Of a stretch of 64,000 bases of DNA, positions 18,636 to 39,533 are shown in pieces. Each line of letters begins with the position of its first letter. Position 1 is the first letter of the stretch. Both the position numbers and the translations under genes were made by a program. The notes below the pieces were generated by a model. The model saw only the letters and a list, made by a program, of their open reading frames with translations. It ran no database searches and was not told the origin of the DNA. Source of the stretch: Kordiimonas marina (GTDB lineage: Bacteria; Pseudomonadota; Alphaproteobacteria; Sphingomonadales; Kordiimonadaceae). The DNA lies in the NCBI RefSeq assembly GCF_023006325.1, contig NZ_JAINDF010000006.1, positions 186,001-250,000 on the forward strand, written 5' to 3'.

Positions 18636-18648
18636 GATTTTTGAGGCT

Positions 18649-19476: not shown

Positions 19477-19530
19477 TGTGTGTCTCCTTTTGAGATAATC
19501 CTGAGCCTTTCTGCTCTTGGCACCCTAAAC

Positions 19531-19546: not shown

Positions 19547-19671
19547 AAATAACCTTTTGTTTATAAAGGATAAAATTGATGGCGCCTGTTGCGGGGAGGG
19601 GAGAAGATGCCTAGTCTGGGCAAGATTTTCCGCAGGAGGGGCTTTGTGTGGAGGCGATGAGGGGTAATAAG

Positions 19672-19691
19672 AAGGGCCCCGAAGGGCCCTT
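19672..19691 (-). terminator. Hairpin after flagellin 3
   Basis: Eight-base arms AAGGGCCC and GGGCCCTT surround CGAA, downstream of flagellin 3 on the minus strand. The following sequence, CTTATTA, is moderately T-rich. Confidence 0.7.
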
Positions 19692-19719
19692 AAGTGTGTT
19701 GCGGTTTCTTAGGAACCAC

Positions 19720-21786: not shown

Positions 21787-21844
21787 TTGTTGTGTGCCAA
21801 GTGCATAATCATTGCCAATAAGCATTATATTGTCAGCAAGGCCG

Positions 21845-26271: not shown

Positions 26272-27193
26272 TCATAAAGATTGGAATGATGCTGCCTACG
26301 GGCGTCATGCGGGCCTCGTGGTATCCAGCCGGGATGGGGCCGACGTGATCGCGTGCGAAACCTGCGGGTTTAAGCATATCGTTCCGCTACCGGACCAAAC
26401 CAAGCTCAAGGAATTCTATGAGCAGGCTTTCTACCAGTCGGAAAAGCCTGATTATCTGAACCGCAACCAGGAAGATCTGGATTGGCGGACATTGGAGTTT
26501 ACGGACCGGTTCCTGGAAACCGAGGCTGTCTTGCCTGAAGGCGCTGCACGTCGTGTGCTGGATATCGGCTGTGGCCCAGGGGACTTTCTTGCCGCCGGGA
26601 AAGCGCGGGGCTGGGACTGTGTGGGGGTCGAGCCTTCACCTGTCGCGGCTGATTTTGCCCGGGGGCGCGGCCTTGAAATCATCACGGCAGCTTTCGACCG
26701 GGATGTTGCGGCTTCCCTTGGCCAGTTTTCCTTCGTCCATATGAGCGAAGTGCTGGAACATATTCCGAACCCGTCGGAACTGCTATCTCTTGCGACAGAG
26801 CTTCTGATCCCGGGTGGGGTGATGTGTGTCTCCGTCCCTAATGATTTCAACCCGCTGCAAAAGGCCTTTTGTGCTGAAAGCGGGGCTGATGATTGGTGGG
26901 TCGTGCCTGAACATCACCTGAATTATTTTGATTTTCAAAGCCTTGAGGGGCTGATCCGGCAATCAGGGCTTCTGCCTTTTGCACGGTCGACCAACTTCCC
27001 GATGGAGGCTTTCCTGCTGATGGGCCAGGATTATACCAAGGCGCCGGACTTGGGGCGTCAGTTGCACGGTCAGCGTAAGAATTTTGACATGACGCTTGGA
27101 CGCCACGAGCCAGAGGCGCGCCGTGCCCTTTATAAGGCACTGGCTTCGGCAGGGCTTGGCAGGCTTGCGATAATCCTTGCGAAAAAAGGCTAA
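26264..27193 (+). CDS. SAM-dependent methyltransferase (class I)
   Basis: This 309-residue protein starts at 26264 (ATG after AGAGGAAAG), overlapping the fusion gene by eight bases. An N-terminal piece with CETCGFKHIVPLPD looks like half of a zinc-ribbon. The Rossmann methyltransferase core follows: RRVLDIGCGPGDFLAAGKARGWDCVGVEPS, then MSEVLEHIPNPSELL and LLIPGGVMCVSVPND. This layout occurs in enzymes that methylate sugars or their precursors in surface-glycan clusters. The exact substrate is unknown; an N- or O-methyl group on the flagellin glycan is a reasonable guess. Confidence 0.8.
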   Translation: MPDHKDWNDAAYGRHAGLVVSSRDGADVIACETCGFKHIVPLPDQTKLKEFYEQAFYQSEKPDYLNRNQEDLDWRTLEFTDRFLETEAVLPEGAARRVLDIGCGPGDFLAAGKARGWDCVGVEPSPVAADFARGRGLEIITAAFDRDVAASLGQFSFVHMSEVLEHIPNPSELLSLATELLIPGGVMCVSVPNDFNPLQKAFCAESGADDWWVVPEHHLNYFDFQSLEGLIRQSGLLPFARSTNFPMEAFLLMGQDYTKAPDLGRQLHGQRKNFDMTLGRHEPEARRALYKALASAGLGRLAIILAKKG

Positions 27194-27280: not shown

Positions 27281-28480
27281 ATGCCGATGAGTCGAAAGTA
27301 TGTGGTAGTTCAGGCCAGTTCGCGGTCATGGCAGGGGGGGCAAGATCTCTGCATGAACCACGTGGATGGTGTGCCTGCTGTCGTGGCCACAGCACGACGG
27401 TTTCTGGAGGCGGACCCTTCGACCAATATCATCATTGCCGCCCCTGCCTTTGATGATGGCGGGCCATTTTCAACCCTGTTTTCCGATTTACCGGCGGAGC
27501 GTATCTCGCTTGTTTTTGCGGCGGATGACAGCCCGCTGAGGCGCCTGGTCATTGCAACCGAGGCCCTGAATGAAGAAGACCATATCGTCCGTGTGGACGG
27601 CCTTCATTTCGCAGTATTGACCGACGCTGTTCTCGAAATGTTGGCGGCAGCTTCTGCTGAGAAGTGGGATTGCGCCAAGTTCCCCGATGATTTCCCGCCC
27701 CAGTTGGGAGCCGACATATACAAGATTGGGGCCTTGCGGCGGCTCTTGGCGACAGCACCGGATGGCGCGTTTCAGGTCCATCCCAAATACGCCATGTTCG
27801 CCGACCCTGAGCATTTCACATGCAGGCACTTCCCAGCGCCGGATGTCTCGGATGATTACCTCCGCCAAGCCCGGGCCCAGGCCGAAACCGTATATTTCAT
27901 TCCGCGCATGGATGTTACCGATAAGGCCTTGGAAGTCGGCAATCAGTTGACCTGGCATTATCAGGAAGCGCTGAAATATTTACCTGGCAGCGGCCGGGTG
28001 CTCGACATCGCCTGCGGTGACGGATACGGCAGCCGCCTGATGGCCGAAAACGGTTATGAGGTCGTGGGTGGGGACCTGGACCCTGAGATCGTTGTCACGG
28101 CGCAAGGCCGGTCCAAGGGCATGAAGAACGCGCCTGACTTTCGCGTCCTCGATGTGACCAAGCTTGCCCTTGAAGATGCCAGCTTCGATGCTGTGGTCAG
28201 CATGGAAACGGTCGAGCATGTGGATGATCAGGCGTATCTCGCAGAAATATGCCGGGTCCTGAAGCCGGGCGGCACATTCATCCTGTCGACGCCGCAGAAT
28301 TCCCTTGGCCATATTCCGGTGAATGCGGAACATGTCCGTGAATATAGCCTCAAGCAAATTCAGGAATTATGTCAAACGCGCTTTGACGTCGTGCAGACGA
28401 TTGGTATTAAGCAGGGACGGGTGGTTATCCCCGACAGTCCTCTCGGCACGAACACTCTTCTCGTGTGTAAAAAGAAATGA
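27281..28480 (+). CDS. Two-domain protein: unassigned N-terminal domain + SAM methyltransferase
   Basis: This 399-residue protein starts at 27281 after GGGAG; an ATG six bases later is an alternative. Residues about 225-399 are a class I methyltransferase (GRVLDIACGDGYGSRLMAENGYEVVGGDLD, METVEHVDDQAYLAEICRVLKPGGTFILSTP). Residues 1-200 are not methyltransferase. They contain HVDGVPAVVATARRFL and RIVRVDGLHF-like strands that faintly recall a cytidylyltransferase or sugar nucleotidyltransferase fold without the usual RLPxK motif. The N-terminal function is unknown. The gene follows the first methyltransferase by 87 bases and precedes the split transketolase. Confidence 0.7.
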   Translation: MPMSRKYVVVQASSRSWQGGQDLCMNHVDGVPAVVATARRFLEADPSTNIIIAAPAFDDGGPFSTLFSDLPAERISLVFAADDSPLRRLVIATEALNEEDHIVRVDGLHFAVLTDAVLEMLAAASAEKWDCAKFPDDFPPQLGADIYKIGALRRLLATAPDGAFQVHPKYAMFADPEHFTCRHFPAPDVSDDYLRQARAQAETVYFIPRMDVTDKALEVGNQLTWHYQEALKYLPGSGRVLDIACGDGYGSRLMAENGYEVVGGDLDPEIVVTAQGRSKGMKNAPDFRVLDVTKLALEDASFDAVVSMETVEHVDDQAYLAEICRVLKPGGTFILSTPQNSLGHIPVNAEHVREYSLKQIQELCQTRFDVVQTIGIKQGRVVIPDSPLGTNTLLVCKKK

Positions 28481-28493
28481 AAGACACGTAACA

Positions 28494-29303
28494 ATGACTG
28501 ATCTGGAACAGCGGGCGCGGGACATCCGGGCAGGCGCCGTCAAAGCGGTCCATGCCGCGCGCTCCGGCCACCCCGGTGGCAGCCTGTCGATCGCCGATAT
28601 GCTGGCCGTCCTCTATTTCGATGAAATGAATGTCGACCCCGCCAAGCCGGACGCGCCAGGGCGTGACCGCTTCGTGCTGTCGAAAGGCCATGCTTGCCCG
28701 GCGCTTTATATAGCGCTGGCGATGAAAGGCTTCTTCCCGATGGAAGAGGCGCTGAAGCTCAGGAAACTTGAAGGCTTCATGGAAGGTCACCCGGATGTCC
28801 GTATCCCTGGTGTTGACGCACCGTCCGGCTCGCTCGGCATGGGCTTGAGCCAGGGCCTCGGCATGGCCATCGGCGCCAAGCTGCAGGGGCTGGATTTCCG
28901 CACCTATGTCATCGTCGGAGACGGCGACATGCAGGAAGGCAATAGCTGGGAAGCCATCATGTCCGCGGGCTTCAAGAAGATGGACAATCTCGTCGCTATC
29001 TATGACGCCAACAAACTGCAGGGCGATGCCCCGGTTGAGACCCAGTTGGACCTCGGCGATGTCGCGGCCAAGGTGGCGCCGTTCGGCTGGCATGTCATTG
29101 AGCTCGATGGTCACGATATCGGGGCACTGAAGGCGGCACTGGCGGAAGCCCGCGCGACCAAGGGAAAGCCCACGTTCATCGTCGCCGATACGGTCAAGGG
29201 CAAGGGTGTCAGCTTCATGGAGAATGTTCTTTACTGGCACGGCAGTGTCACCATGAGCGACGAAGAACTCGCCAATGCCTTGTCTGAGCTGGAGGACGCT
29301 TGA
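28494..29303 (+). CDS. Transketolase, N-terminal (ThDP-binding) subunit
   Basis: This 269-residue subunit starts at the ATG at 28494. It shows the N-terminal half of transketolase: SGHPGGSLSIADMLAVLYF, SKGHACPALYIALA, and the ThDP/Mg2+ motif GDGDMQEGNSWEA ending at YDANK. The split into two genes is the form seen in some archaea, in Actinobacteria and in specialised pathways such as apulose use. Transketolases move a two-carbon ketol unit between sugars. Its place inside a glycan operon suggests work on a sugar precursor and not the pentose-phosphate pathway. It is translationally coupled to the C-terminal subunit (TGATG). Confidence 0.88.
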   Translation: MTDLEQRARDIRAGAVKAVHAARSGHPGGSLSIADMLAVLYFDEMNVDPAKPDAPGRDRFVLSKGHACPALYIALAMKGFFPMEEALKLRKLEGFMEGHPDVRIPGVDAPSGSLGMGLSQGLGMAIGAKLQGLDFRTYVIVGDGDMQEGNSWEAIMSAGFKKMDNLVAIYDANKLQGDAPVETQLDLGDVAAKVAPFGWHVIELDGHDIGALKAALAEARATKGKPTFIVADTVKGKGVSFMENVLYWHGSVTMSDEELANALSELEDA

Positions 29304-30262
29304 TGACCGATCTTGAGTTTTGGCCCATGGGGGCAGAGGTTTCGGTACGTGACGCCTTCGGCCGCGTGCTGGTTCATATGGCTGATGAGCGCAAGGACTG
29401 GGTGCTTCTGGACGCTGACGTTGCGGGCGGCACGGGCGCCAAGCCCTTGGTGGCTGCGCACCCTGACAGGGTCGTCCAGTTCGGGATCGCCGAACAGAAT
29501 ATGATGGCGGCCGCAGGCGGCATGGCGGACACCGGGCTTATCCCCGTGGTTTCCACCTTCGCGGCTTTTGGCACCATGCGCGCGCACGAACAGTTCCGTA
29601 CGGCCATTGCCTACCCGAACCGCAACGTAAAACTCTGCTGTTCCCACATCGGCCTCGATGTCGGGCCGGACGGGGCCACGGCCCAGATGCTGGAGGACCT
29701 GGCAACCATGCGGGCCGTGCCGGGTGTGACCGTTATCAGCCCGGCTGACGCCAATGAATTCATGCAGGCCTTTGAGGCGATCCTCGATCATGACGGCCCG
29801 GTCTATATGCGTATCGGCCGTAGTCCGACGCCGGTGGTGACCGATAGCGCGGCACCGTTCAGGATCGGCAAAGCCAAGCGCCTCAGGGAAGGCAGCGATG
29901 TCACTGTCGTTGCGACCGGGGTGATGGTGGCCCGTGCGCTGAAGGCTGCTGAGGCGCTGGCGGCTGAAAATATTTCCGTCCGCGTCGTCAATATGGCGTC
30001 GATCAAACCCATCGATACCGATGAGCTGGTTGCCGCCGCGCGGGAAACCAAAGGGATCGTCACCGCCGAGGACCATAACGTCATCGGTGGCCTTGGCGGC
30101 GCTGTCGCCGAATGTCTGGCAGCCCACCATCCGGCGCGTGTGCGCTTCGTGGGTGTGCAGGACCGGTTCGGGAAATCGGGCGAACACACGAACTTGCCCG
30201 CGGCTCTCGGGATCGCGGCGGATGATGTGGCCGCTGCTTGCCGCGCACTTCTGAAGGATTAA
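29303..30262 (+). CDS. Transketolase, C-terminal subunit
   Basis: This 319-residue partner of the preceding gene starts at 29303, where TGA and ATG overlap by one base. It carries the pyrimidine-binding half: VQFGIAEQNMMAAAGGMADTG with the catalytic Glu in IAEQN, then SHIGLDVGPDGATAQMLEDLA, and a C-terminal domain TVVATGVMVARALKAAEAL. The order N-subunit then C-subunit and the complete motifs suggest an active heterotetramer. It is followed four bases later by an SDR gene. Confidence 0.88.
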   Translation: MTDLEFWPMGAEVSVRDAFGRVLVHMADERKDWVLLDADVAGGTGAKPLVAAHPDRVVQFGIAEQNMMAAAGGMADTGLIPVVSTFAAFGTMRAHEQFRTAIAYPNRNVKLCCSHIGLDVGPDGATAQMLEDLATMRAVPGVTVISPADANEFMQAFEAILDHDGPVYMRIGRSPTPVVTDSAAPFRIGKAKRLREGSDVTVVATGVMVARALKAAEALAAENISVRVVNMASIKPIDTDELVAAARETKGIVTAEDHNVIGGLGGAVAECLAAHHPARVRFVGVQDRFGKSGEHTNLPAALGIAADDVAAACRALLKD

Positions 30263-30266
30263 TCCC

Positions 30267-31007
30267 ATGGAACTTAAGGATAAGGTTGCGCTGGTAACGG
30301 GCGGCAGCCGGGGTATTGGCCGTGCCGTTGTTGAAGCGTTCGTTCGCGAAGGCGCCAAGGTTTATTTTACCTACGCCAGCAATGATGCAGCCGCCGTTGA
30401 AACCTGCCAGGCCGCAGGCCTTGCATCTGACCGGGCGATCCGGGCGGACGTTAGAGACCGGGCGTCGGTGAAAAAGGCGCTTGAAGCTGTCGGTCAGGCC
30501 GAAGGACGGATCGATGTGCTCGTCAATAACGCGGGCATCAACAAGCCGACGGATTTCGATGCCATAACCGATGAAGACTGGGACGACATCATGGCGGTCA
30601 ACCTGAAGGGGCCGTTCGTGGTCACCCAGGAAGCCTTGCCCTTCTTGCGCAAGTCACCCGCTGGCAGTGTTATCCAGATGGGATCGGTCTCGGGCCAGTA
30701 TGGCGGGCCGCGCACAGCGCATTATGCTGCGTCGAAGGCTGGTCTGATTTCACTGTCCCAGGTGATTGCGCGCTTCCTGGCACCTGACAATATCCGCAGC
30801 AATACGCTGGCGGCAGGGCTTGTGGCCTCTGAGATGGCGGCGGGCGCGATGAGTAACCCGGCGGTAAAAGCCGCAGCGGAAAGCGTGCTTCTGAAGCGCA
30901 TGGGAACAACAGCTGAGATTGCCGAAGCCGCCGTTTTCCTGGCGAGCGACCGGTCCAGCTATGTCACCGGCCAGACGCTCAATGTCAACGGTGGACTATA
31001 TTTCTAA
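30267..31007 (+). CDS. Short-chain dehydrogenase/reductase
   Basis: This 246-residue classical SDR has the cofactor motif TGGSRGIGRA at the N-terminus, NNAG in the fourth strand, catalytic Ser in QMGSVSGQYGG, and Tyr-Lys in AHYAASKAG. It ends with the usual YVTGQTLNVNGGLYF. It resembles FabG/3-ketoacyl reductases in sequence but sits among sugar genes, so it probably reduces a keto-sugar or aldehyde. Its frame runs close to the next gene: the ADH start lies 16 bases after its stop. Confidence 0.9.
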   Translation: MELKDKVALVTGGSRGIGRAVVEAFVREGAKVYFTYASNDAAAVETCQAAGLASDRAIRADVRDRASVKKALEAVGQAEGRIDVLVNNAGINKPTDFDAITDEDWDDIMAVNLKGPFVVTQEALPFLRKSPAGSVIQMGSVSGQYGGPRTAHYAASKAGLISLSQVIARFLAPDNIRSNTLAAGLVASEMAAGAMSNPAVKAAAESVLLKRMGTTAEIAEAAVFLASDRSSYVTGQTLNVNGGLYF

Positions 31008-31023
31008 TTCAAGGGGTATCGAA

Positions 31024-32205
31024 GTGGTACAAGCGTTCGGATTTTTTCAACCCACCCAGGTTTTTGTCGAAGAAGGGGCCGCGGGCCGCTTGGCCGACCT
31101 TTGCAAGCTGTACGGCTCTAAGCCTCTGGTCGTCTATTCGGCTGATCTGGAAGCTTTCGCCAATCCGGTGATCGCGGACCTCGAAGTTGCTGGCCTGTCG
31201 CCCGTCCGTTTTGCCCAGAAGGACCCTGAGCCGACGTGTGATTTTATCGATGCCGCCACGGCCGAGTTGAAGGCTGAAGCCCCGGACTGTGTTGTTGGCA
31301 TCGGCGGCGGCAGTGCCGTGGACCTTGCCAAAGCTTTCGCCATTTCGCTGACGCAGGAAGCCGGGATCTGGATGTATGCCAACCTATCGAACCGGCCGCC
31401 GCTTCCCCTGAAAGCGCCGGTTCTGCCGGTTATCGCAGTTCCGACAACGTCGGGGACGGGCTCGGAAGTCACGCCCTATGCTGTCCTGACCAAGACGGAT
31501 ACCAAGCAGAAAGGCACGGTTCAGGAACCTGCAATTTTCCCGAAAGTGGCGTTGGTTGACCCGGTCTTCACCGCTGGGATGCCGCCCGCCTTGACCGCTT
31601 CAACCGGCATGGACGCATTCGCCCATGCGCTTGAAGCCACCATCAACGTGTCCAAAGTCGCGCCGATGGCCGAGCTATTCGGCATCCAGGCCATGAAGCT
31701 GATCCTTGAGTGGCTGCCGGTCGCCTATGAGGACGGCAAGAACCTGGAAGCGCGGCAACAGATGGCCTTTGCGGCCAGCCTTGCCGGGATGGCGATTTCG
31801 CACCGTGGCACCACGACGGCGCATGCGATTGCGGAACCGCTCGGCGCGCTGACCCATATTCCGCACGGTCTTGGTGTTGCCATCAGCACGGTGCCGGTGC
31901 TCCGGCATTCGCTCCCGGCGGCTTCTGCGTCGCTCGCGCGTCTGTGGCGGGACGTCATGGGCGGTGAGGCGCTCGCGACTGAAGAAGCGGAAGCGATGGC
32001 CTTTGTCGACGCCCTGGAAGCCCTGATGACCCGCGTTGGACTAAACAAAACCGTGCGGGACATTCTGGGGGATGAGAAGTGCGAAGGTCTCAGGGACTTG
32101 CTGGTCCAGAATATTCTGGAATTCAAGTTCCGCCCGCTCAAGCAGCATCCGGTGGAGTTTGACAAAGCTGCCCTGGAGACAATTACCGCCGACATTATCG
32201 GCTAA
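31024..32205 (+). CDS. Iron-containing (type III) alcohol dehydrogenase
   Basis: I start this 393-residue protein at the GTG at 31024, which follows AAGGGG and gives the family-type beginning VQAFGFFQPTQVFVEEGA. The cofactor motif is GIGGGSAVDLAKA. The metal site is formed by Asp and His in STGMDAFAHALEA and two His in ISHRGTTTAHAIAEPLGALTHIPHGLG. Type III ADHs reduce aldehydes or oxidise alcohols with NAD(P). It is the last gene of the plus-strand part of the island and ends 6 bases from the convergent zinc ADH gene. Confidence 0.9.
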   Translation: MVQAFGFFQPTQVFVEEGAAGRLADLCKLYGSKPLVVYSADLEAFANPVIADLEVAGLSPVRFAQKDPEPTCDFIDAATAELKAEAPDCVVGIGGGSAVDLAKAFAISLTQEAGIWMYANLSNRPPLPLKAPVLPVIAVPTTSGTGSEVTPYAVLTKTDTKQKGTVQEPAIFPKVALVDPVFTAGMPPALTASTGMDAFAHALEATINVSKVAPMAELFGIQAMKLILEWLPVAYEDGKNLEARQQMAFAASLAGMAISHRGTTTAHAIAEPLGALTHIPHGLGVAISTVPVLRHSLPAASASLARLWRDVMGGEALATEEAEAMAFVDALEALMTRVGLNKTVRDILGDEKCEGLRDLLVQNILEFKFRPLKQHPVEFDKAALETITADIIG

Positions 32206-32211
32206 GGAGCA

Positions 32212-33210
32212 TCAGGGCTCGACAATGCCCTTGATATAGCCTTCCGTGCGCGCCGCGCTCTGCTCATAGCCCTTGCCGACATCGGCGAGGGCGAAGCGGT
32301 GTGTGATCAGCTTCTCGACCGGGAAAATACCTTCGCCGAGCGCCCACATTGCCCGTTCCAGGTCATGCCGTTTATCGAGCGACTGGTTCGGATATGCCGG
32401 GATCAGCACTGGCGCACGGTTCTGCAAATAGTTGCCGATCATCAGCGGCATGTCGTTCGAATAGGCGGCGGCCAGCACAAGCTTCGCCCGTACTTTGGCC
32501 TGGCAAACGCTGGCGGCGAGCTGAAGGCTGCTGGCGGTACCGGCATATTCCACCGCCACCTGAACGCCGACATTACCCGTCAGTGCCATGATCTCTTTCC
32601 AGGCGTCGGTTTTCTTGCCGTTGATCACGGCTGTCGCGCCGAAGGATGAGGCCATGGCCAGACGGTCATCGTGGTGGCCGACGACAATAAGCTGCGCGAG
32701 TGGCACGCGGGCGAGGGCGGCAATGAGCAGCAGGCTCATATAGCCGTCGCCGACCACGAGAACCGTATCGCCATAGTCAGGCTGGGTCTGGCGGATGATA
32801 TTCATCGTTGCCATCAAGGGTTCCCCGATCGCGAGCGAAAGGTCTCCCTTGTAGGCGTCCGGCACCTTGACCAGCATGGTATCTTTTTCAAGAAAATAGT
32901 CCGCGAAGCCGCAACCGCTGTAGGTCAGGCCCGTAACCTTGTCGCCTTCCTTGAAAGCCGTGACGTCCGGACCGACGGCTTCAACCGTTCCGACCACTTC
33001 ATGGCCAAGGTCGGCCGGAAAGTCGGTATAGCGGAAGGAAACGCCCGCGGTGCCGATGACCGAGCCGTCAAAAACCGGCGCTTCTGACGAGCAGATGCCG
33101 CAGGCACGCACTTTGATCAAGACGTCATTGCCCGTAGGTGTGGGGACTTCGGCGTCGATGATTTCGAAACGGCGGGGGGCGACCAGTTTGGCGGCTTTCA
33201 TCAGCGTCAT
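32212..33210 (-). CDS. Zinc-type medium-chain alcohol/polyol dehydrogenase
   Basis: This 332-residue MDR protein starts at 33210 after AAGGGG, not at 33249. It has the catalytic zinc ligand region VRACGICSSEAP and GHEVVGTVEAVG, and a Rossmann site VLVVGDGYMSLLLIAALA. The usual four-Cys structural-zinc lobe is absent: that segment reads TYSGCGFADYFLEKD. It resembles threonine or polyol dehydrogenases. It lies 5 bases after the DXS-like gene in a two-gene unit divergent from the ATP-grasp gene. The substrate is probably a hydroxylated intermediate of the glycan pathway. Confidence 0.85.
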   Translation of the reverse strand: MTLMKAAKLVAPRRFEIIDAEVPTPTGNDVLIKVRACGICSSEAPVFDGSVIGTAGVSFRYTDFPADLGHEVVGTVEAVGPDVTAFKEGDKVTGLTYSGCGFADYFLEKDTMLVKVPDAYKGDLSLAIGEPLMATMNIIRQTQPDYGDTVLVVGDGYMSLLLIAALARVPLAQLIVVGHHDDRLAMASSFGATAVINGKKTDAWKEIMALTGNVGVQVAVEYAGTASSLQLAASVCQAKVRAKLVLAAAYSNDMPLMIGNYLQNRAPVLIPAYPNQSLDKRHDLERAMWALGEGIFPVEKLITHRFALADVGKGYEQSAARTEGYIKGIVEP

Positions 33211-33215
33211 GTTTG

Positions 33216-34985
33216 TTACCCCTTGAGCGTTTTGGCGATTTTCGCGCAAACGCTGTCGGTGTCGAGGCCATATTGACGGTAGATATAATCCCGCGTGCCA
33301 TGCTCGATAAACTGTTTCGGGAACCCGAACCGTTGAACGGCAGGGGCGGTGCCTTCAAGGGCGTTGCAGGCTTCAAGAACCGCGGCGCCGATGCCGCCCG
33401 GCAGGACGTTCTCTTCCAGCGTCACCACATGGCCGTACTGGGGCAGAAGCGCAACGATTGCCTCGTTCAAGTCCGACACTTCGGTCAGGCAGATATGATC
33501 TGCTTTGATGCCGTGGTCTTTCTCAAGCGCGGCTTGCGCCAGTTGGCCATAGCGGTTCTGCATCCCGACCGACAGGATCAGCGTGTCAGCCGACGGGGTG
33601 AAGCCCGCAAGCTTACGGTCGATTACGACGTCGCCATCCGGGTCGTCGATAATGCCGCCATAGGGGAACAGGACCAGCGTCGGATGTGCGAGGTTGGCGA
33701 CTTCCGTCTTCACGCACTCGGCAAGGTCTGCCTGGGTCGCGGGGTAGACGATGCGCAGGTTCGGGACCGCACGCAGGTAGGAAAGGTCGAGCATGGCGTG
33801 GTGCGTGACATGGTCGAGCCCGGTATGGCCCGAGCGCGCCGCAACCATCATGACCGGCAGGTCGGAAATGCACAGGTCATGGACGATCTGGTCATAGGTG
33901 AGCTGCAGGAAGGTCGCTTCGAAACAAACGATGGGTTTGACGCCGCGAAGCGCGAGGCCGCCGCCGAAGGTAACAGCGTGCTGTTCGGCCATGCCGACAT
34001 CAAGGACCCGCTCCGGATATTTACGAGAAAGGCCATAGATGCCGGTATTTTGCAGCGTGGCGGGGGTGACGACAAAGACGTCTTTGTCCTCTTCCAGAAC
34101 CTCATGCATGGTTTCGGCGAAGACAGCGGCGTGCGATTTGGACTTCGGCCCTTCGGTGTTCTCCAGCGTGCCGGTATCGAACGGGAAGTTCCAGTGGATG
34201 CGCACCGGGCTCTTCTCGGCCATAGTTTCAAGACCTTTGCCCTTCACGGTTTTGACATGGAGGACGGTGGGGCCTTCAAGCGTGTCTTTGATCTCATTCA
34301 GCTTGGCAATAAGGGCGCCGATATCATGGCCGTCAATGGGGCCTTCATAGCGCAGGCCCAGTTCCTTGAAGATGTTGGCCGCGTTGGGATCGCGAGTGAT
34401 TTTCTTGAAATGCTCGTGCCAGCCACCGAAGTTCTCATCGAGCGCCATCTCATTGTCATTCAGGACATAGAGGAGGCGGCCCTTGTCGACGGCCAGGTGG
34501 TTCAGGGCTTCCTGGTTCGAGCCTTCAACGAAGGAGCCATCGCCGATGACGGCAACGCTGATGTTGGATTTGCCCTGAAGCTCGAAAGCTTTCGCCGCCC
34601 CCAGCGCAAGCGAAAGCGCGGCACCGGCGTGGCTGGACGTCACAGCCTCATAAGGGCTTTCAGGACGGAAAGCATAGCCCGGGGCACCGCCGTTCACGCG
34701 GATTTCCCGCAGGAGCGGCAGGCGTTCTGTCAGCATTTTCTGCACGTAAACCTGGTGGCCGATATCCCATACCAGCGAATCTTCCGGGAAATCGAAAACA
34801 TGGTAGAGCGCCGTTGTCAGCTCGATCACGCCGAGGTTGACGCCGATATGCCCGCCGGTTTTGGAAATGATCTCGATCAGTTCCTGCCTCAACTCGGCAC
34901 AAAAGTCGGGCAAGGTGTCTGCCCCGATCGATTTGACGTAGGCAGGATCCATGATTTCGCGGACTAGGCGGTAATTTTTATACAT
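33216..34985 (-). CDS. Divergent 1-deoxyxylulose-5-phosphate synthase homologue
   Basis: This 589-residue ThDP enzyme aligns with DXS along its length: GVIELTTALYHVFDFPEDSLVWDIGHQVY, AVIGDGSFVEGSNQEALNHLA, VLNDNEMAL, DVGMAEQHAVTFGGGLALRG and the catalytic-Glu region. Differences from true DXS are visible: GHSSTS becomes SSHAGAA, and the DGQTHQG loop reads LDHVTHHA. It is also somewhat shorter than the usual 620-640 residues. A role in isoprenoid synthesis is therefore unlikely. In this island it may condense a pyruvate-derived acyl unit with an aldehyde to build a deoxy-ketose. That is an inference. Confidence 0.82.
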   Translation of the reverse strand: MYKNYRLVREIMDPAYVKSIGADTLPDFCAELRQELIEIISKTGGHIGVNLGVIELTTALYHVFDFPEDSLVWDIGHQVYVQKMLTERLPLLREIRVNGGAPGYAFRPESPYEAVTSSHAGAALSLALGAAKAFELQGKSNISVAVIGDGSFVEGSNQEALNHLAVDKGRLLYVLNDNEMALDENFGGWHEHFKKITRDPNAANIFKELGLRYEGPIDGHDIGALIAKLNEIKDTLEGPTVLHVKTVKGKGLETMAEKSPVRIHWNFPFDTGTLENTEGPKSKSHAAVFAETMHEVLEEDKDVFVVTPATLQNTGIYGLSRKYPERVLDVGMAEQHAVTFGGGLALRGVKPIVCFEATFLQLTYDQIVHDLCISDLPVMMVAARSGHTGLDHVTHHAMLDLSYLRAVPNLRIVYPATQADLAECVKTEVANLAHPTLVLFPYGGIIDDPDGDVVIDRKLAGFTPSADTLILSVGMQNRYGQLAQAALEKDHGIKADHICLTEVSDLNEAIVALLPQYGHVVTLEENVLPGGIGAAVLEACNALEGTAPAVQRFGFPKQFIEHGTRDYIYRQYGLDTDSVCAKIAKTLKG

Positions 34986-35016
34986 TTAACCCTCGGTTAC
35001 CGATGTGGTGCAAAAA

Positions 35017-35035
35017 TTGCTTATCGTATAAGCAA
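35017..35035. promoter_or_regulatory. Palindrome between divergent glycan genes, possible operator
   Basis: Perfect eight-base arms TTGCTTAT and ATAAGCAA are separated by CGT. It sits in the 174-base divergent promoter region of the DXS-like and ATP-grasp genes. Symmetric AT-rich arms suit a dimeric repressor, but no regulator gene is adjacent. Confidence 0.45.
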
Positions 35036-35159
35036 GTCATGTGCCATGTAGGCGTGTTTGCTGGTTAGAAGGAACATACAAACTTCGGTACGAATGTACA
35101 GTGTCGTGGGAAGATTGTTTAGGGTAATGGTGTGATGCCGGACAGCGATAGGTAAATTT

Positions 35160-36383
35160 ATGAAAACATTGTTGATTATCGGGGCTGGGATGGAGCAGGC
35201 GGAGGCCTATAAGCTTGCCAAGTCGAAGGGGCTGACCGTGGTCGGCACGGACATGGACCCCGAGGCCCCGGCGTTCGAATTTGCCGATGTGCGCCTGATC
35301 GCCAGCACCCGCGATGTGGATGAAACATGCGCTGTGGTCGGTGCTTTTGCCAAGACCCATAAAATCGATGGCGTCATGACCATCGCGAACGATGTTCCCT
35401 ATACAGTTGCCAAGGTGGCTGAGATGCTCGGCGTACCAGGAGCTCCCTCAGAAGCAGTCGCGCGGCTGACCAACAAGGCGGAGATGAAACGCGCCTTCCA
35501 GGCCGCAGGTGTGGCGACACCCGCATTTTGCGAAATCAGGACGCTTGCCGAGCTTGAGGCCGAGGCCGGTAAGCGGTCCTTCCCGATGATCTTGAAGCCA
35601 TCGGACGGACGCGGTGCCAAGGGCGTGCTCTATCTCGAAGCGGAAATGGACCTGGCTTGGGCCTTTGATCATGCCATGTCGGCGTGCGGTAGCGGCCTTC
35701 TTTTGTTGGAGGCCTATTATGGTGGTCCGCAGCTGTCGGTCGAAGGCATGTTCATTGGTGGCCGCTATCATGCGGTTGCTTTTGCTGACCGGAATTATTC
35801 GAACCTGCCGCTTACCAAGCCTTATATCGTCGAAGATGGCGGGACGCTGCCGTCCCGCTTTGGCGGAGATATGCAGGAAAAAATCCGCGCCGTTATCGAA
35901 GCCGGCGCCAAGGCCATGGGGCTTCATTGGGGTGTGGTCAAAGCGGACATCGTGCTGGATGATGCCGGTGAACCGGCGATTATCGAACTGGCGGGACGCT
36001 TGTCAGGCAATTATCTCGCCACACACCATATTCCCTTCGCTTACGGCGTGGACCTTGTGGGTGCCGTGATGGATCTCTGCCTGGGGGACGAGGTTGCCCC
36101 CGAACGGTTGGTTCCGAAACGCATGGCCTATTTGGGGGTGCGCTATTTCTTCCCGCCAGCAGGGCGCGTAGTCGCAGTTTCAGGCGGTGACGAAGTCGCG
36201 GCGCTGCCTTATGTGCATGAACTGATGATTTACCGTAAGGCTGGGGATATGCAGCCCCGGATCGAAAGTCACGGGGCACGAGCCGGTACCGTTATGGCCG
36301 AAGGCGCGAGCTATGAAGAAGCGACAGAGCGGGCGGAAGCCTGTGCTGCAATGATTAAGTTTGTTGTAGAAACTCAGAAATAG
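35160..36383 (+). CDS. ATP-grasp ligase family protein
   Basis: This 407-residue protein begins with a Rossmann-like preATP-grasp domain (MKTLLIIGAGMEQAEAYKLAKSKGLTVVGTD) followed by the ATP-grasp core (FPMILKPSDGRGAKGVLYL, LLLLEAYYGGPQLSVEG, VVKADIVLDDAGEPAIIELAGRLSGNY). It is of the carbamoyl-phosphate-synthase/PurK-like branch used in many natural-product and glycan pathways to make C-N or peptide-type bonds. A reaction that would attach an amino acid or acyl group to an amino-sugar is conceivable. First gene of a four-gene plus-strand unit. Confidence 0.8.
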   Translation: MKTLLIIGAGMEQAEAYKLAKSKGLTVVGTDMDPEAPAFEFADVRLIASTRDVDETCAVVGAFAKTHKIDGVMTIANDVPYTVAKVAEMLGVPGAPSEAVARLTNKAEMKRAFQAAGVATPAFCEIRTLAELEAEAGKRSFPMILKPSDGRGAKGVLYLEAEMDLAWAFDHAMSACGSGLLLLEAYYGGPQLSVEGMFIGGRYHAVAFADRNYSNLPLTKPYIVEDGGTLPSRFGGDMQEKIRAVIEAGAKAMGLHWGVVKADIVLDDAGEPAIIELAGRLSGNYLATHHIPFAYGVDLVGAVMDLCLGDEVAPERLVPKRMAYLGVRYFFPPAGRVVAVSGGDEVAALPYVHELMIYRKAGDMQPRIESHGARAGTVMAEGASYEEATERAEACAAMIKFVVETQK

Positions 36384-36402
36384 ACCGCTAAGATCGGCCG
36401 CA

Positions 36403-38397
36403 ATGACCAAACCCGCACTTTATACGGCTTTTCATCTCAATCTGGCTTTCTCCTCGATAGAGGAGGAGGACAGGCCCATCGTTATTGAGCGCTGTTATTG
36501 GCCACTGTTGCACCTGGCGGAGCAGGGCTTTCCCATCGGCATTGAAATGACGGGCTATACCCTGAGGGCGATTGGCGACCATTCGCCAGCTTGGGTCGGC
36601 CGGTTCAGGGAGCTGTTGCAGGAAGGGGCCGCGGAACTGATCGCCAGCGGCTATACACAGATGATTGCCCCGCTTGTGCCACCTGAGGTCACCCGCAGGA
36701 ACCTAGCTTACGGCCTTGCTGACTATGAACGCATCTTAGGCGTACGGCCGGAAATCGCGCTTCTGAATGAGCAAGCCTATGCCCCCGGGCTCGTGCCGAT
36801 TTATCATGAAATGGGCTTTAAGGCGCTGATGATGGATTGGGCAGAACCCGCGAGCCATCACCGGGAATGGCCCGCCGAATGGTCGCTGTCACCGCAGCGG
36901 ATCGAAGGGGCGGATGGCACAGTCATGCCGGTGGTCTGGTCCGATGCCATGTCGTTCCAGAAGTTCCAGCGCTATGCTCATGGCGAAATCGACCCGGAAG
37001 ATTATGTTGAGTTTCTGTCCGGTCAGCTGGGAGGCGGGGCCACCGCAATGCCGATCTATACCAGCGACGCGGAAATATTCGACTTCAGGCCTGGCCGGTT
37101 TGAAAGCGAAGCCGCGCAGGCGGGAACCATTTCGGAATTCGACCGGATTGCGCTTTTGCTCACGGCGCTCAAGAAAAGCGATGATGTAGAGCTATGCCTG
37201 CCGTCATCGGTGATCCCATTGGTGGATCAGGACGGGCCGCTTCTTCATCTGGAAAGTGCCGCCGTGCCGGTGCCCGTGAAGAAGCAGCGGAAATATAACC
37301 TCGTCCGCTGGGGGGTGACGGGACGCGACGACCTCAGCCTCAATACCAATTGCTGGCGCCGCTATGAAGCGCTTATGGCGCGTGGTGTGCAGGATGAAGA
37401 GACCTGGCGCAGCTTATGCCGCGCCTGGGCCAGCGACCTCAGGACCCATATAACCGAGAAAAGGTGGCGCAAGGCCATGGAGGCGGCCCCCACCCTGGAG
37501 GCTGCGGCCGAAGTCGATGCCACTGAAGCGCCGCTTCCGGATGACATTAAGGTCACGATTACGAAGCGCTATCTGAGCATCGAAACGCCGACCCAACATC
37601 TGATGCTCAAGCTGTTCCGGGGGCTGGCGGTCCAGTCTTTCGGGTATGGCCCGGTCAAGCAACAGGTTCATGGGTCCCCTGGGCCTGAAGGCGTGGTTGG
37701 CACGCTGGCGCACGGTTTCTTCAAGGATATTCTGTATGGCGCCGACTTCTATAGCGGCCATCTGGTCTTTGAACCGCATAACAGCCATAAGGTCACTGAC
37801 CTCGCGCACTGTGTGCCTGAATGGCGCTGGCTTCCAGGCCCACGGGCTGTTGAGGTTACGGCTTCTGTACCCAGTGCCAAAGGTCCGCTCGAGAAAAAGG
37901 TCCGCTTTTATGTGGATGAGAGCCGGCTTGAAGTCCTGTATGCATCCCTGTGGGATTGCCCCGTGGATGGGGTGCTGCGCCTTGGCCACATTACGCTCAA
38001 TCCGCAGACTTTCGACAAGAACAGCCTGTATATGAGCTGCCATAATGGCGGAGAACTTCCTGAGAAACATACCCTGTTTAAGAATGGCAAGCTGGTGGTG
38101 TTCGATCATGGCCGCCATGTCTCACGGCTTGTGACCGCACAGACTGCCCAGGGTATGACGGGGGGGTATCTTGAACTTGGTGACGATCGCCATTTTGTCC
38201 GCCTCGAAATGGCGCGTACAGATGCGGCCGGTCTCGGTATGGTTACCTGCCAGGAGGTTGACGATCTCTATTTCATACGGGCTTCTGTGAGCCTCAGGGA
38301 AGTGGATGAGACATCGGTCAGGCCATCGCTGGGCGCTGCCTCGGTCTTTGGCGCGCCTGTTGTTCGCTATGGAATAAGGATTGGTCGCCACGACTAA
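36403..38397 (+). CDS. Glycoside hydrolase 57-like protein
   Basis: This 664-residue protein has no signal peptide. The N-terminal half follows the GH57/GH38-type barrel: a first strand with YTAFHLNLAFSS, ELIASGYTQMIAPLVPPE, ALLNEQAYAPGLVPIYHEMGFKALMMD and a later VVWSDAMSFQKFQRY. The second half (from about 370) is beta-rich, as in the C-terminal domain of these enzymes. GH57 enzymes act on alpha-glucans by hydrolysis or branching. Inside a flagellar glycan island the natural substrate is unclear; it may process a lipid-free glycan or be a repurposed transferase. It lies 20 bases after the ATP-grasp gene. Confidence 0.7.
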   Translation: MTKPALYTAFHLNLAFSSIEEEDRPIVIERCYWPLLHLAEQGFPIGIEMTGYTLRAIGDHSPAWVGRFRELLQEGAAELIASGYTQMIAPLVPPEVTRRNLAYGLADYERILGVRPEIALLNEQAYAPGLVPIYHEMGFKALMMDWAEPASHHREWPAEWSLSPQRIEGADGTVMPVVWSDAMSFQKFQRYAHGEIDPEDYVEFLSGQLGGGATAMPIYTSDAEIFDFRPGRFESEAAQAGTISEFDRIALLLTALKKSDDVELCLPSSVIPLVDQDGPLLHLESAAVPVPVKKQRKYNLVRWGVTGRDDLSLNTNCWRRYEALMARGVQDEETWRSLCRAWASDLRTHITEKRWRKAMEAAPTLEAAAEVDATEAPLPDDIKVTITKRYLSIETPTQHLMLKLFRGLAVQSFGYGPVKQQVHGSPGPEGVVGTLAHGFFKDILYGADFYSGHLVFEPHNSHKVTDLAHCVPEWRWLPGPRAVEVTASVPSAKGPLEKKVRFYVDESRLEVLYASLWDCPVDGVLRLGHITLNPQTFDKNSLYMSCHNGGELPEKHTLFKNGKLVVFDHGRHVSRLVTAQTAQGMTGGYLELGDDRHFVRLEMARTDAAGLGMVTCQEVDDLYFIRASVSLREVDETSVRPSLGAASVFGAPVVRYGIRIGRHD

Positions 38398-38495
38398 CAC
38401 ACTATAAAATATGAAGAAGTTCTTTGAACGGTGTGTGGGCGATGATAGGCTGAGCGCAATCTTGTTGCGTGAGGCCCATGGGGAAGGAAAACCCG

Positions 38496-39533
38496 ATGAC
38501 GATTTCAAGCTTTGACTGCTCAGACACGGATCTGACCGGTAAGTCCATTTTGATTACCGGCGGGACCGGGTCGTTCGGCAAAATGATGTTGAAGCACATT
38601 CTGGCCAATCATAAACCCCGCAAGGTTATTGTCTTCGCCCGTGGCGAATATAATCATTATCTGCTCCAGAATATGCTGACTGAGGAGCAGCTCCAACTGG
38701 TCCGTTTCTTCATCGGCGACGTTCGGGACCAGGACCGGTTGGTTATGGCGATGCGCGGTGTTGACATCGTAATCCATGCGGCTGCTCAAAAGCAGGTGCC
38801 TCTCGCCGAATATAACCCGTTTGAATGTATCCGTACCAATGTGATCGGGGCTGAGAATATCGTACAGGCCTCCATCCGGGCGGGCGTGAAACAGGTTATC
38901 GCGCTCTCGACTGATAAAGCCGTCAACCCGATCAACCTGTATGGCGCCAGCAAACTGGCGTCCGATAAGATTTTCGTGGCGGCCAACGCGCTTGCGTCAG
39001 GAACAGGTACACGCTTTGCCGTGGTGCGCTATGGCAATGTCCTTGGCTCGCGTGGCAGCGTTATCCCCTTTTTCCGCAAGCTTCTGAAGGAAGGGTCTGA
39101 CTTCCTTCCTGTTACGGACCCCAGGATGACCCGTTTCTGGATCACGCTGGAACAGGCGGTCGCCTTTACCATGTCATGTTTGCCGGCGATGCGGGGCGGT
39201 GAAATTTTCGTACCTAAGATTCCGTCCATGCGCATCGTCGATCTGGTCGAAGCGATGGCGCCGGGGATCGAGGCGCGCCATGTCGGTATTCGTCCCGGTG
39301 AAAAGCTTCATGAAATCATGATTACCGAGCATAGCGCTCCGCGTACTTTCGATATGGACGACCGGTTTGTTATCGATCCGGATTGGAGCTTCTGGGATCG
39401 GGAACCTCATTCATCCGATGGGTACCCGGCGATGCCCGAAGGCTTCGAATATACCAGCGACAAAAACGATAGCTGGATGTCGGTGGCGGATTTGCAGGCT
39501 GTTCTGAAAAATATTCCGGAAGCTGGGGATTAG
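38496..39533 (+). CDS. pseB: UDP-GlcNAc 4,6-dehydratase (PseB/FlaA1 type)
   Basis: The start is the ATG at 38496, placed after GGGAAGGAAAA. The 345-residue enzyme has the NAD motif ITGGTGSFGKMM, HAAAQKQVPLAEYNP, and the catalytic region ALSTDKAVNPINLYGASKLASDK with the Tyr-x3-Lys. It continues RYGNVLGSRGSVIPFF and ends with an Arg-rich C-terminus. PseB-type enzymes convert UDP-GlcNAc to a UDP-4-keto-6-deoxy sugar with C5 inversion, the first step of pseudaminic acid synthesis (FlmA in Caulobacter). The next gene supplies the aminotransferase. Confidence 0.9.
   Translation: MTISSFDCSDTDLTGKSILITGGTGSFGKMMLKHILANHKPRKVIVFARGEYNHYLLQNMLTEEQLQLVRFFIGDVRDQDRLVMAMRGVDIVIHAAAQKQVPLAEYNPFECIRTNVIGAENIVQASIRAGVKQVIALSTDKAVNPINLYGASKLASDKIFVAANALASGTGTRFAVVRYGNVLGSRGSVIPFFRKLLKEGSDFLPVTDPRMTRFWITLEQAVAFTMSCLPAMRGGEIFVPKIPSMRIVDLVEAMAPGIEARHVGIRPGEKLHEIMITEHSAPRTFDMDDRFVIDPDWSFWDREPHSSDGYPAMPEGFEYTSDKNDSWMSVADLQAVLKNIPEAGD

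What the first reader, a model, noticed from the sequence alone, without database searches (positions are those of the whole stretch)
28494..38397. Unusual ThDP/dehydrogenase/ATP-grasp module inside a flagellin-glycosylation island
Between nonulosonic-acid genes (NeuB-type synthase, SpsF-PseG fusion on one side; PseB, PseC on the other) lies a set not found in known pseudaminic or legionaminic acid pathways: a split transketolase, an SDR, an iron ADH, a zinc ADH, a divergent DXS homologue, an ATP-grasp enzyme and a GH57-like protein. Two ThDP enzymes able to move two-carbon units, plus three dehydrogenases, point to synthesis of a sugar or side chain with a modified carbon skeleton. I infer an unusual glycan on the flagellins; its structure cannot be deduced.
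Basis: partly seen in the sequence, partly recalled or inferred. Interest (0 to 1): 0.78.

Follow-up and report, generated by a model that had tools for sequence, protein, structure and literature searches.

The report
Sugar-acid side-chain cassette for flagellin glycan
Beside its flagellin genes this bacterium (genus Kordiimonas) carries an exchangeable set of enzymes that probably builds an unusual sugar-acid and hangs it on the sialic-acid-like sugar of its flagella; related sets occur in other bacteria, but the chemistry has not been worked out.

Summary
All the genes described are present. The region is a sfm-type flagellin-glycan cluster, similar in gene logic to the Shewanella oneidensis sfmABCDE operon (NeuB-domain protein, ThDP enzyme, FabG-like SDR, methyltransferase, ATP-grasp protein), so it is not without precedent.

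In 80 loci selected by the GH57-like gene, NulO (PseB, PseC, NeuB, PseG) and flagellin genes usually surround a variable cassette: ThDP enzyme + SDR + ATP-grasp. The ThDP slot holds a split transketolase (41 loci) or an IlvB-like enzyme (6). In two unnamed Pseudomonadota genomes of another class it holds a DXS-like enzyme. SDR and ATP-grasp are present in 41 of 41 transketolase loci.

The window is unusual in carrying two ThDP enzymes. Its DXS-like protein groups with those two and shares their loss of acceptor-site residues. Best reading: ThDP carboligation plus SDR reduction makes a polyhydroxy acid, and the ATP-grasp enzyme amide-links it to the PseC-made amine of a pseudaminic-type sugar. 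The published S. oneidensis mass data fit this scheme. All reactions, the acceptor (a hexuronate?), the GH57 step and the window's exact product are inferred.

The parts
21812..23659 (+). FlmG-like TPR protein (presumed flagellin NulO transferase)
   Evidence: TPR hits; upstream of NeuB in several Kordiimonas loci. The name FlmG rests on resemblance, not on a curated model or a comparison run here
23663..24529 (+). Short NeuB (NulO synthase with only the NeuB domain found)
   Evidence: PF03102 196 bits at residues 26-254; below PseI/NnaB equivalog cut-offs; only NeuB match of the genome
24514..26271 (+). SpsF-type cytidylyltransferase fused to a PseG-like UDP-sugar hydrolase domain
   Evidence: CTP_transf_3, weak PseG 35.9 bits at 264-510, cut-off 153.55
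26219..27193 (+). Methyltransferase MT1 (start probably nearer 26264)
   Evidence: Methyltransf_23; relatives in many loci
27281..28480 (+). NT-MT2: N-terminal domain without Pfam hit plus methyltransferase domain
   Evidence: Methyltransf_11 at 241-335; relatives beside ThDP genes in L031, L092, L173, L214
28494..29303 (+). TKN: transketolase ThDP-binding subunit
   Evidence: PF00456 198.6 bits
29300..30262 (+). TKC: transketolase pyrimidine/C-terminal subunit
   Evidence: PF02779, PF02780; best PDB match is the split transketolase 6yaj
30267..31007 (+). FabG-like SDR reductase
   Evidence: PF13561, PF00106; adjacent to the ThDP enzyme in 45 of 47 ThDP loci
31009..32205 (+). Iron-type alcohol dehydrogenase (frame open from 30919; start not fixed)
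   Evidence: PF00465; 73% identical gene in the nearest relative L052
32212..33249 (-). Zinc-type alcohol dehydrogenase
   Evidence: PF08240, PF00107; at 100 bits or more in none of the 80 loci
33216..34985 (-). DXS-like ThDP enzyme, paralogue of the housekeeping DXS
   Evidence: clade with the DXS-like cluster proteins of G803 and G1062
35160..36383 (+). ATP-grasp ligase with L-amino-acid-ligase C-terminal domain
   Evidence: PF18603; model pLDDT 94.9, TM 0.86 to L-amino acid ligase 3vot
36403..38397 (+). GH57-like glycosidase/transglycosidase
   Evidence: PF03065; model pLDDT 91.3; E123 and D222 invariant in 36 sequences and aligned with 1k1w E123 and D214
38469..39533 (+). PseB (UDP-GlcNAc 4,6-dehydratase type)
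   Evidence: PF02719 331.7 bits
39539..40732 (+). PseC (aminotransferase)
   Evidence: PF01041 364 bits
40872..41702 (-). Flagellin
   Evidence: PF00669, PF00700
17544..20550 (-). Three further flagellin genes (17544-18371, 18649-19476, 19720-20550)
   Evidence: Flagellin_N hits at these places, frames

Best explanation
The segment is a variable side-chain cassette inside a pseudaminic-type flagellin-glycan cluster of the sfm kind. PseB and PseC make the 4-amino sugar nucleotide. The cassette makes a polyhydroxy acid: a ThDP enzyme adds a two-carbon unit to the aldehyde end of a sugar acid, and the neighbouring SDR reduces the new ketone. Methyltransferases decorate the hydroxyls. The ATP-grasp ligase joins the acid's carboxylate, as an amide, to the amine installed by PseC, where PseH would put an acetyl group. 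PseG, short NeuB and SpsF then finish the CMP-NulO (the order relative to ligation is open), and the FlmG-like protein moves it to flagellin. In this genome a second extension is likely: the split transketolase (C2 from a ketose) and the DXS-like enzyme (C2 from pyruvate), with Fe-ADH and Zn-ADH handling carbonyl/alcohol steps. Shown here: gene content, linkage, exchange of ThDP types beside the same SDR and ligase, conserved and lost active-site residues. Inferred: every reaction, the acceptor (perhaps a hexuronate) and the role of GH57.
For: (1) ThDP slot: of 80 GH57-selected loci 41 have split TK and 6 an IlvB-like enzyme; 45 of 47 ThDP loci have the SDR adjacent on the same strand; 41 of 41 TK loci have ATP-grasp. 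In the order of G803, 3 of 345 genomes (G803 included) have the short NeuB, and all 3 have a ThDP enzyme and SDR nearby: DXS-like in G803 and G1062, IlvB-like in G876. (2) Not conditioned on GH57: TKC in 385 Alphaproteobacteria, 6 of 6 hits at 57-59% identity in full clusters, 9 of 9 at 41-46% outside (3 of the 6 contigs were already among the 80). (3) ATP-grasp type follows cassette type: 63.6% mean identity within a type (16 pairs) against 36.3% between types (71 pairs), while PseB is 78.3 and 75.6%. (4) ATP-grasp model has its highest listed TM-score with an L-amino acid ligase. (5) PseH over the curated cut-off in 0 of 20 cluster genomes. (6) The three cluster DXS-like proteins form a clade (0.999 FastTree, 100 UFBoot) and have R476->L, R478->Y and Y392->E/Q; the nine other DXS compared keep these except one R478K (E. 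coli numbering recalled). (7) S. oneidensis: mono-N-acetyl NulO (274 Da) plus nitrogen-free C9H16O7, C10H18O7 or C11H20O7. With a pyruvate C2 unit these equal a hexuronate-derived C8 acyl group with 1, 2 or 3 methyls. (8) Of 96 other ORFs picked from cassette regions, 29 match a methyltransferase model and 15 a sulfotransferase model.
Against: No reaction has been shown. 8 of 51 loci with ATP-grasp and more than 8 kb upstream have neither split TK nor IlvB-like, so a ThDP enzyme is not obligatory. Neighbours are not constant: of 59 loci with more than 8 kb upstream, NeuB is in 38, PseB in 31, PseC in 33, flagellin in 41; 10 of 80 loci show no NulO or flagellin gene in the held DNA (several contigs are cut). 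The PseH test is weak: only 1 of 14 control genomes passes its cut-off, and Caulobacter FlmH is only 26% identical to PseH (PMC7591256). The split TK keeps most sugar-phosphate contacts, so its acceptor may be phosphorylated. In S. oneidensis, loss of the ATP-grasp gene gave a somewhat smaller gel shift but no structure, and the easy in-source loss of the 264-Da part could also suit a glycoside. No S. oneidensis Sfm sequence was compared here; the link to sfm rests on published annotations. The 80 loci were selected by GH57.
Confidence: 0.6

Rival explanations
1. The ThDP enzymes and dehydrogenases make a separate sugar (a ketose or chain-extended sugar) that is glycosidically attached to the NulO, perhaps by the GH57-like protein acting as a transglycosidase; the ATP-grasp enzyme adds something else.
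For: The GH57-like protein keeps both catalytic acids and its best structural match is a 4-alpha-glucanotransferase. In S. oneidensis the 264-Da part is lost readily in the source.
Against: Among the 25 families listed for 96 other cassette ORFs, one ORF matched a glycosyltransferase (GT2) and two a CTP transferase (the L031 and L214 frames, which are PseF-like); 14 rarer families were not shown. ATP-grasp type follows cassette type, which ties the ligase to the variable moiety. No glycosyltransferase is named inside the sfm operon.
Confidence: 0.15
2. The ThDP enzymes alter the carbon backbone of the nonulosonic acid itself, giving a NulO with a non-standard skeleton.
For: NeuB is an unusual short form, so its substrate could be unusual.
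Against: Short NeuB of 59-71% identity to the window's occurs with TK, IlvB-like, DXS-like or no ThDP enzyme. PseB, PseC and PseG/SpsF form a backbone route. S. oneidensis, with an sfm operon, has a NulO read as ordinary mono-N-acetyl pseudaminic acid.
Confidence: 0.1
3. The ATP-grasp enzyme attaches an amino acid or a small hydroxy acid, and TK/SDR make its precursor; the DXS-like/Zn-ADH pair serves an unrelated pathway inserted into the island.
For: L-amino acid ligases are among the closest structures. The DXS-like/Zn-ADH pair lies on the opposite strand; no DXS-like relative was found at the same threshold in 147 relatives.
Against: DXS-like proteins of the same clade are the only ThDP enzyme recognised in two clusters of another class with the same kind of neighbours. 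The sfm side group contains no nitrogen.
Confidence: 0.12
4. Bystander primary-metabolism genes (spare transketolase and DXS) parked in the island.
For: The DXS-like protein just passes the dxs equivalog cut-off.
Against: A better-scoring DXS is elsewhere. The cluster DXS-like proteins lost residues kept in the other DXS compared. The TK-SDR-ATP-grasp linkage recurs in distant bacteria.
Confidence: 0.03

Closest known systems
Shewanella oneidensis MR-1 sfmABCDE flagellin-modification operon (PMC3765264)
   Same: NeuB-domain protein, ThDP enzyme, FabG-like SDR, methyltransferase and ATP-grasp protein; PseB and PseC homologues in the genome, no clear PseH
   Different: ThDP enzyme is annotated ilvB, not split TK plus DXS-like; Maf proteins suggested for transfer; no GH57, Fe-ADH or Zn-ADH in the passages and sections read; reactions not established there either
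Campylobacter jejuni 5-(2,3-di-O-methylglyceroyl)amino pseudaminic acid (PMC3068675, passages)
   Same: Flagellin NulO with an O-methylated hydroxy-acid amide
   Different: Acid is a C3 glycerate; linked to Cj1295; no ThDP cassette in the passages seen
Caulobacter crescentus FlmG pseudaminic-acid flagellin glycosylation (PMC7591256, passages)
   Same: FlmG with PseB/PseC/PseG/NeuB-type enzymes in an alphaproteobacterium
   Different: NeuB of 38 kDa with a required arginine R322, an acetyltransferase FlmH, and no side-chain cassette in the passages seen
Housekeeping 1-deoxy-D-xylulose-5-phosphate synthase
   Same: Pfam domains, ThDP motifs, catalytic His/Glu positions
   Different: 33-37% identity to the nine other DXS compared; residues R476, R478, Y392 (E. 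coli numbering, recalled) replaced

Membership tests
sfm-type flagellin modification cluster (S. oneidensis) | NeuB-domain protein + ThDP enzyme + FabG-like SDR + methyltransferase + ATP-grasp together | tested here: met
   window against the operon description
sfm-type flagellin modification cluster (S. oneidensis) | ThDP enzyme of the IlvB type | tested here: not met
   window has split TK and DXS-like; IlvB-like occurs in related loci L065, L072, L092, L102, L120, L215
sfm-type flagellin modification cluster (S. oneidensis) | Direct sequence orthology of the five proteins | not tested
sfm-type flagellin modification cluster (S. oneidensis) | mono-N-acetyl NulO with nitrogen-free side group on flagellin | not testable with these tools
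   needs mass spectrometry
Canonical pseudaminic acid pathway | PseB and PseC | tested here: met
   by Pfam family
Canonical pseudaminic acid pathway | PseH acetyltransferase | tested here: inconclusive
   none over the cut-off in 20 genomes, but divergent PseH such as FlmH may score below it
Canonical pseudaminic acid pathway | PseI equivalog | tested here: not met
   161.3 bits against cut-off 340.25
DXS | Score over the curated dxs cut-off | tested here: met
   467.5 against 465.95 bits
DXS | Acceptor-site residues R478 and Y392 (recalled as glyceraldehyde-3-phosphate contacts) | tested here: not met
   Y and E in the window, Y and Q in G803 and G1062
Transketolase | ThDP, pyrimidine and C-terminal domains as a split pair | tested here: met
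Transketolase | Phosphate-site residues R318, S345, H416, R474 (human numbering, recalled) | tested here: inconclusive
   R318 and H416 kept in 52 of 53, S345 to G in 50 of 53 cluster sequences; R474 kept in the pairwise alignment of the window protein
GH57 | Fold and the two catalytic acids | tested here: met
GH57 | Glycosidase or transglycosidase activity | not testable with these tools
   needs enzyme assay
L-amino-acid-ligase-like ATP-grasp | ATP-grasp fold with LAL C-terminal domain | tested here: met
   PF18603, TM 0.86 to 3vot

The most novel reading that the evidence does not exclude
A general and so far undescribed biosynthetic logic for NulO decoration: interchangeable ThDP carboligases of three distantly related types (split transketolase, acetolactate-synthase-like, DXS-like) lengthen a free sugar acid such as a hexuronate by two carbons, an SDR reduces it, and a matched ATP-grasp ligase amide-links the resulting chain-extended acid to flagellar pseudaminic acid. 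Kordiimonas cassettes are swapped between species, and the window's genome runs two rounds, the second with a DXS recruited away from isoprenoid synthesis.
Probability: 0.35. Interest if true: 0.85.

Novelty: new variant of a known kind. Interest (0 to 1): 0.7.

Why it matters
It turns an unsolved flagellin glycan group (the 236-264 Da part in S. oneidensis, 2013) into a testable pathway. It also shows that the same cassette logic is wider than the two Shewanella species its authors knew: ThDP+SDR+ATP-grasp loci come from records labelled Alphaproteobacteria, Pelobacter, Desulfuromonas, Desulfotignum, Gemmatimonadetes and others (many are metagenome bins). It predicts a combinatorial code for flagellar surface chemistry in which the ThDP enzyme sets the end group and the ATP-grasp enzyme the attachment, and it offers candidate enzymes for C-C bond formation on sugar acids. 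It also warns that a curated model would name this cluster enzyme a plain DXS.

Tried and rejected
DXS-like as marker for the module: searches in 147 relatives, 385 class genomes and the plasmids gave no close relative (37-38%, below 60%). GH57 was used instead, and alignment A1 was the single genome-contig query (137 of 197 stretches encode a relative, best 80 kept). That query biases the 80 loci towards GH57-bearing clusters; the TKC search was run as the check.

A uronate link through KduI: 3 of 96 unassigned cassette ORFs are KduI-like, in L071, L101 and L110. L101 and L110 show no ThDP enzyme by my profiles; L071 is a 6.2-kb contig. I first guessed that such genes sat between TKC and SDR in L070 and L076; one search showed a methyltransferase and a B12-radical-SAM protein there, so this was dropped.

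First-reader idea of a changed NulO backbone: kept as a rival, low. 'Transketolase' in the C. butyricum paper PMC12342839 proved to be an ordinary metabolic gene in a table (passages). 'Thiamine pyrophosphate' in PMC3426422 concerned a Maf domain (passage).

Literature: the searches were seen as listings, several of them capped (for example 20 of 198 papers, 15 of 65). None of the listed titles or abstracts describes a transketolase or DXS in a NulO or flagellin cluster; no paper held transketolase, pseudaminic and 1-deoxy-D-xylulose together. The library holds open-licence papers only. Of papers opened, I saw passages only, except sections 5, 11 and 13 of PMC3765264.

Base composition of the DXS-like/Zn-ADH pair does not stand out (58-60% GC against 57.7% for the window).

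In one search the column meant for R474 was off by one; R474 is taken instead. The 53 cluster sequences include second TK copies and three contigs held twice. In one search cassette types were assigned by me; types B and D share one ATP-grasp type, L063 counted as different from A although its ATP-grasp is 57-60% identical, and the 4 pairs of L063 with type B were dropped (16 + 71 of 91 pairs counted). In one search one weak IlvB-like hit (L125, 264 bits) was left out by the 600-bit threshold, and 4 of the 6 IlvB-like loci were the seeds of that profile.

Full report
WHAT IS THERE. The organism is a Kordiimonas: the window's contig belongs to a 3.68-Mb genome, and several same-genus handles have contigs of the same length as Kordiimonas records (for example G011, G016 and G017 against L054, L075 and L060). 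Read on the + strand, the order is FlmG-like, short NeuB, SpsF-PseG fusion, two methyltransferases, TKN, TKC, SDR, Fe-ADH, then Zn-ADH and the DXS-like gene on the minus strand, then ATP-grasp, GH57-like, PseB, PseC, and a flagellin on the minus strand. Three more flagellins lie upstream.

THE ISLAND IN RELATIVES. The GH57-like gene is found in 21 of 147 relatives, own genome included. Twenty regions around these genes were read. In most of those long enough, the outer genes are the same (NeuB, SpsF-PseG, often MT1 on one side; GH57, PseB, PseC, flagellin on the other), but the middle differs. Type A (L032, L038, L043, and by position L051) has TKN-TKC-SDR-FeADH, a KDO8P-synthase-like gene (L032: 328.6 bits against cut-off 242), a second split TK and a second Fe-ADH. 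Others have radical-SAM plus TKN-TKC-SDR, or FkbM methyltransferase plus a GFO/IDH oxidoreductase without TK. The window matches L052, its nearest relative, on both sides (Fe-ADH 73%, ATP-grasp 78%). In between, Zn-ADH and the DXS-like gene stand where L052 has KDO8P-synthase-like, TK2 and Fe-ADH2.

A CASSETTE WITH A MATCHED LIGASE. Among 14 loci including the window, ATP-grasp identity follows cassette type: mean 63.6% in 16 same-type pairs against 36.3% in 71 different-type pairs, while PseB stays at 78.3 and 75.6%. Example: L054 is 77% identical to the window in PseB but 38% in ATP-grasp. Types were assigned by me, types B and D share one ligase type, and 4 pairs were dropped (see Tried and rejected).

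THE ThDP SLOT. Eighty named loci were fetched with the GH57 alignment and scanned with profiles made from cluster members. 41 of 80 hold a split TK; all 41 also have SDR and ATP-grasp, and 39 of 41 have NulO or flagellin genes in the held DNA. Six have an IlvB-like enzyme (above 600 bits); Pfam confirms three ThDP-enzyme domains in the five examined (L065, L072, L092, L102, L120), and the acetolactate-synthase models are their best NCBIfam hits in the two examined (L072, L092). In 45 of 47 ThDP loci the SDR is adjacent on the same strand (not in L070, L076). Of 51 loci with ATP-grasp and more than 8 kb upstream, 39 have TK, 4 IlvB-like and 8 neither. Of 59 loci with more than 8 kb upstream, 55 have at least one NulO or flagellin gene; singly, NeuB 38, PseG 40, PseB 31, PseC 33, flagellin 41. 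Ten of 80 loci show none; among them are cyanobacterial records and cut contigs. A Solidesulfovibrio carbinolicus plasmid has NeuB, PseF, MT1, SDR, TKN, TKC, NT-MT2, ATP-grasp, GH57, PseB and PseC together.

CHECKS NOT CONDITIONED ON GH57. TKC in 385 Alphaproteobacteria: besides the window, 6 hits have 57-59% identity and 9 have 41-46%. All 6 lie with TKN, SDR, ATP-grasp, GH57 and NeuB; none of the 9 has ATP-grasp, GH57, NeuB, PseB or PseC in the fetched DNA. Short NeuB in 398 genomes of the phylum: four hits, the window included, at 61% or more with frames of 289-297 aa, then a gap to 41%. G803 has PseB-PseC-SpsF-NeuB-PseG-MT1-NTMT2-DXSlike-SDR-ATPgrasp-GH57. G1062 has PseB, PseC, a 167-aa frame over the PseF cut-off (covering 164 of 222 positions), NeuB, PseG, a methyltransferase, NTMT2, SDR, DXS-like, ATP-grasp and GH57. 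G876 has PseB-PseC-NeuB-IlvBlike-SDR up to the end of a 5.5-kb contig.

THE DXS-LIKE ENZYME. The genome's better-scoring DXS lies elsewhere (799 bits). The cluster DXS-like proteins of the window, G803 and G1062 form one clade (0.999 in FastTree; 100 UFBoot in IQ-TREE) against nine others. All three have L at R476, Y at R478, and E or Q at Y392. The other nine have R476 and Y392 throughout and R478 in eight (K in one). H49, H299, E370, R420, D427 and H431 are kept in all twelve. Numbering and roles are recalled for E. coli DXS. The pattern suggests retained ThDP chemistry with a changed acceptor site.

THE SPLIT TRANSKETOLASE. Against human TK, R318, H416, D424 and R474 are kept and S345 is Gly in the window (numbering recalled). 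Gly stands there in 50 of 53 cluster sequences; H416 and D424 are kept in 52 of 53, and in none of the 9 stand-alone split TKs.

ATP-GRASP AND GH57. The ATP-grasp model (pLDDT 94.9) has its highest TM-score among the listed rows with L-amino acid ligase 3vot (0.86); the best E-value is with 4dim, labelled phosphoribosylglycinamide synthetase. The GH57-like model (pLDDT 91.3) matches 4-alpha-glucanotransferase 1k1x first (TM 0.42-0.44) and GH38 mannosidases with TM of about 0.5-0.6. E123 and D222 are invariant in 36 sequences and align with E123 and D214 of 1k1w. It is therefore probably an active glycoside-processing enzyme, but its step is unknown.

THE PUBLISHED PRECEDENT. S. oneidensis sfmABCDE (PMC3765264; passages, and sections 5, 11 and 13 in full) encodes a NeuB-domain protein, a ThDP enzyme annotated ilvB, a FabG-like SDR, a methyltransferase and an ATP-grasp protein. 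Deletion of any of the first four brings flagellin to about its unmodified size; deletion of the ATP-grasp gene gives a slightly smaller shift. The glycan is read as a mono-N-acetyl NulO (C11H19N2O6+ ion) with a nitrogen-free increment C9H16O7, C10H18O7 or C11H20O7. The authors knew the cluster from one further species. As an amide-linked acid, C9H18O8 has one unsaturation, the carboxyl. Among fully hydroxylated aldehydo acids of 2-7 carbons extended by a pyruvate-derived C2 unit and reduced, only the six-carbon one reaches C9H16O7, with one methyl. With a ketose-derived C2 unit only the five-carbon one does, with two methyls. The ilvB annotation favours the first, but this is arithmetic, not proof. 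A methylated hydroxy-acid amide on flagellar Pse is known from C. jejuni (di-O-methylglyceroyl, PMC3068675, passages).

PseH AND NeuB. None of 20 genomes with this cluster has PseH over the curated cut-off (best 69.6 against 93.1 bits, G1062), and S. oneidensis is reported to lack a clear PseH. This fits a free amine for the ligase. The test is weak: 1 of 14 control genomes passes, and divergent acetyltransferases such as FlmH (26% to PseH) may fall below. The short NeuB is the only NeuB match in the window's genome and in 9 more of the 20, so the short form seems to suffice. In Caulobacter NeuB an arginine at position 322 is required (passages), beyond the length of the short form.

WHAT VARIES AROUND IT. 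Ninety-six unassigned ORFs of 150 aa or more were picked from cassette regions of loci with ATP-grasp. 29 match a methyltransferase model, 15 a sulfotransferase, 5 a pyruvyltransferase, 5 an FkbM methyltransferase, 4 a formyltransferase, 3 KduI, 3 Fe-ADH, 3 radical SAM and 2 PIG-L; 25 of 39 matched families were shown. Hydroxyl- and amine-decorating functions prevail, as expected for a polyhydroxylated side chain.

VERDICT. The genes are real, and the core is linked across distant bacteria. The finding is a variant of the sfm kind, with a split TK as main ThDP enzyme and an extra DXS-like/Zn-ADH pair. That ThDP enzymes of three types stand beside the same SDR and ligase is the most interesting result; I saw no description of it in the listings. 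The reactions remain to be shown.

Noticed in passing
L065:8386-10004 and L068:8386-10004: Pelobacter/Desulfuromonas clusters have frames between ATP-grasp and GH57 that in L065 are a PIG-L-type deacetylase and a formyltransferase (the L068 pair was scanned only within), suggesting the other NulO amine may be formylated.
   Followed up: partly
L071, L101, L110: KduI/IolB-like isomerase genes in GH57 loci with ATP-grasp; no ThDP enzyme recognised in L101 and L110. A hint that sugar acids are the side-chain precursors.
   Followed up: partly
L032:16186-17049; also L052, L057, L061: A KDO8P-synthase-like gene sits with a second split transketolase in type A cassettes.
   Followed up: partly
L081, L090, L098, L107, L116: Weaker Fe-ADH relatives (76-93 bits) upstream of TKN in other alphaproteobacterial clusters.
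   Followed up: no
L115, L118, L123 (cyanobacterial records): GH57-like relatives (38-39%) without any recognised NulO or flagellin gene in the held DNA, so the GH57 family is probably wider than flagellin glycosylation.
   Followed up: no
L058, L101: Clusters with more than one ATP-grasp-like gene, possibly for two different acyl groups.
   Followed up: no
window 17544-20550 and 40872-41702; genome C20, C22, C23: Seven flagellin-N matches in the genome, four in the window.
   Followed up: no
window 33216-34985: The curated dxs model would name this paralogue DXS (467.5 against 465.95 bits) although acceptor-site residues are replaced: a likely misannotation.
   Followed up: yes
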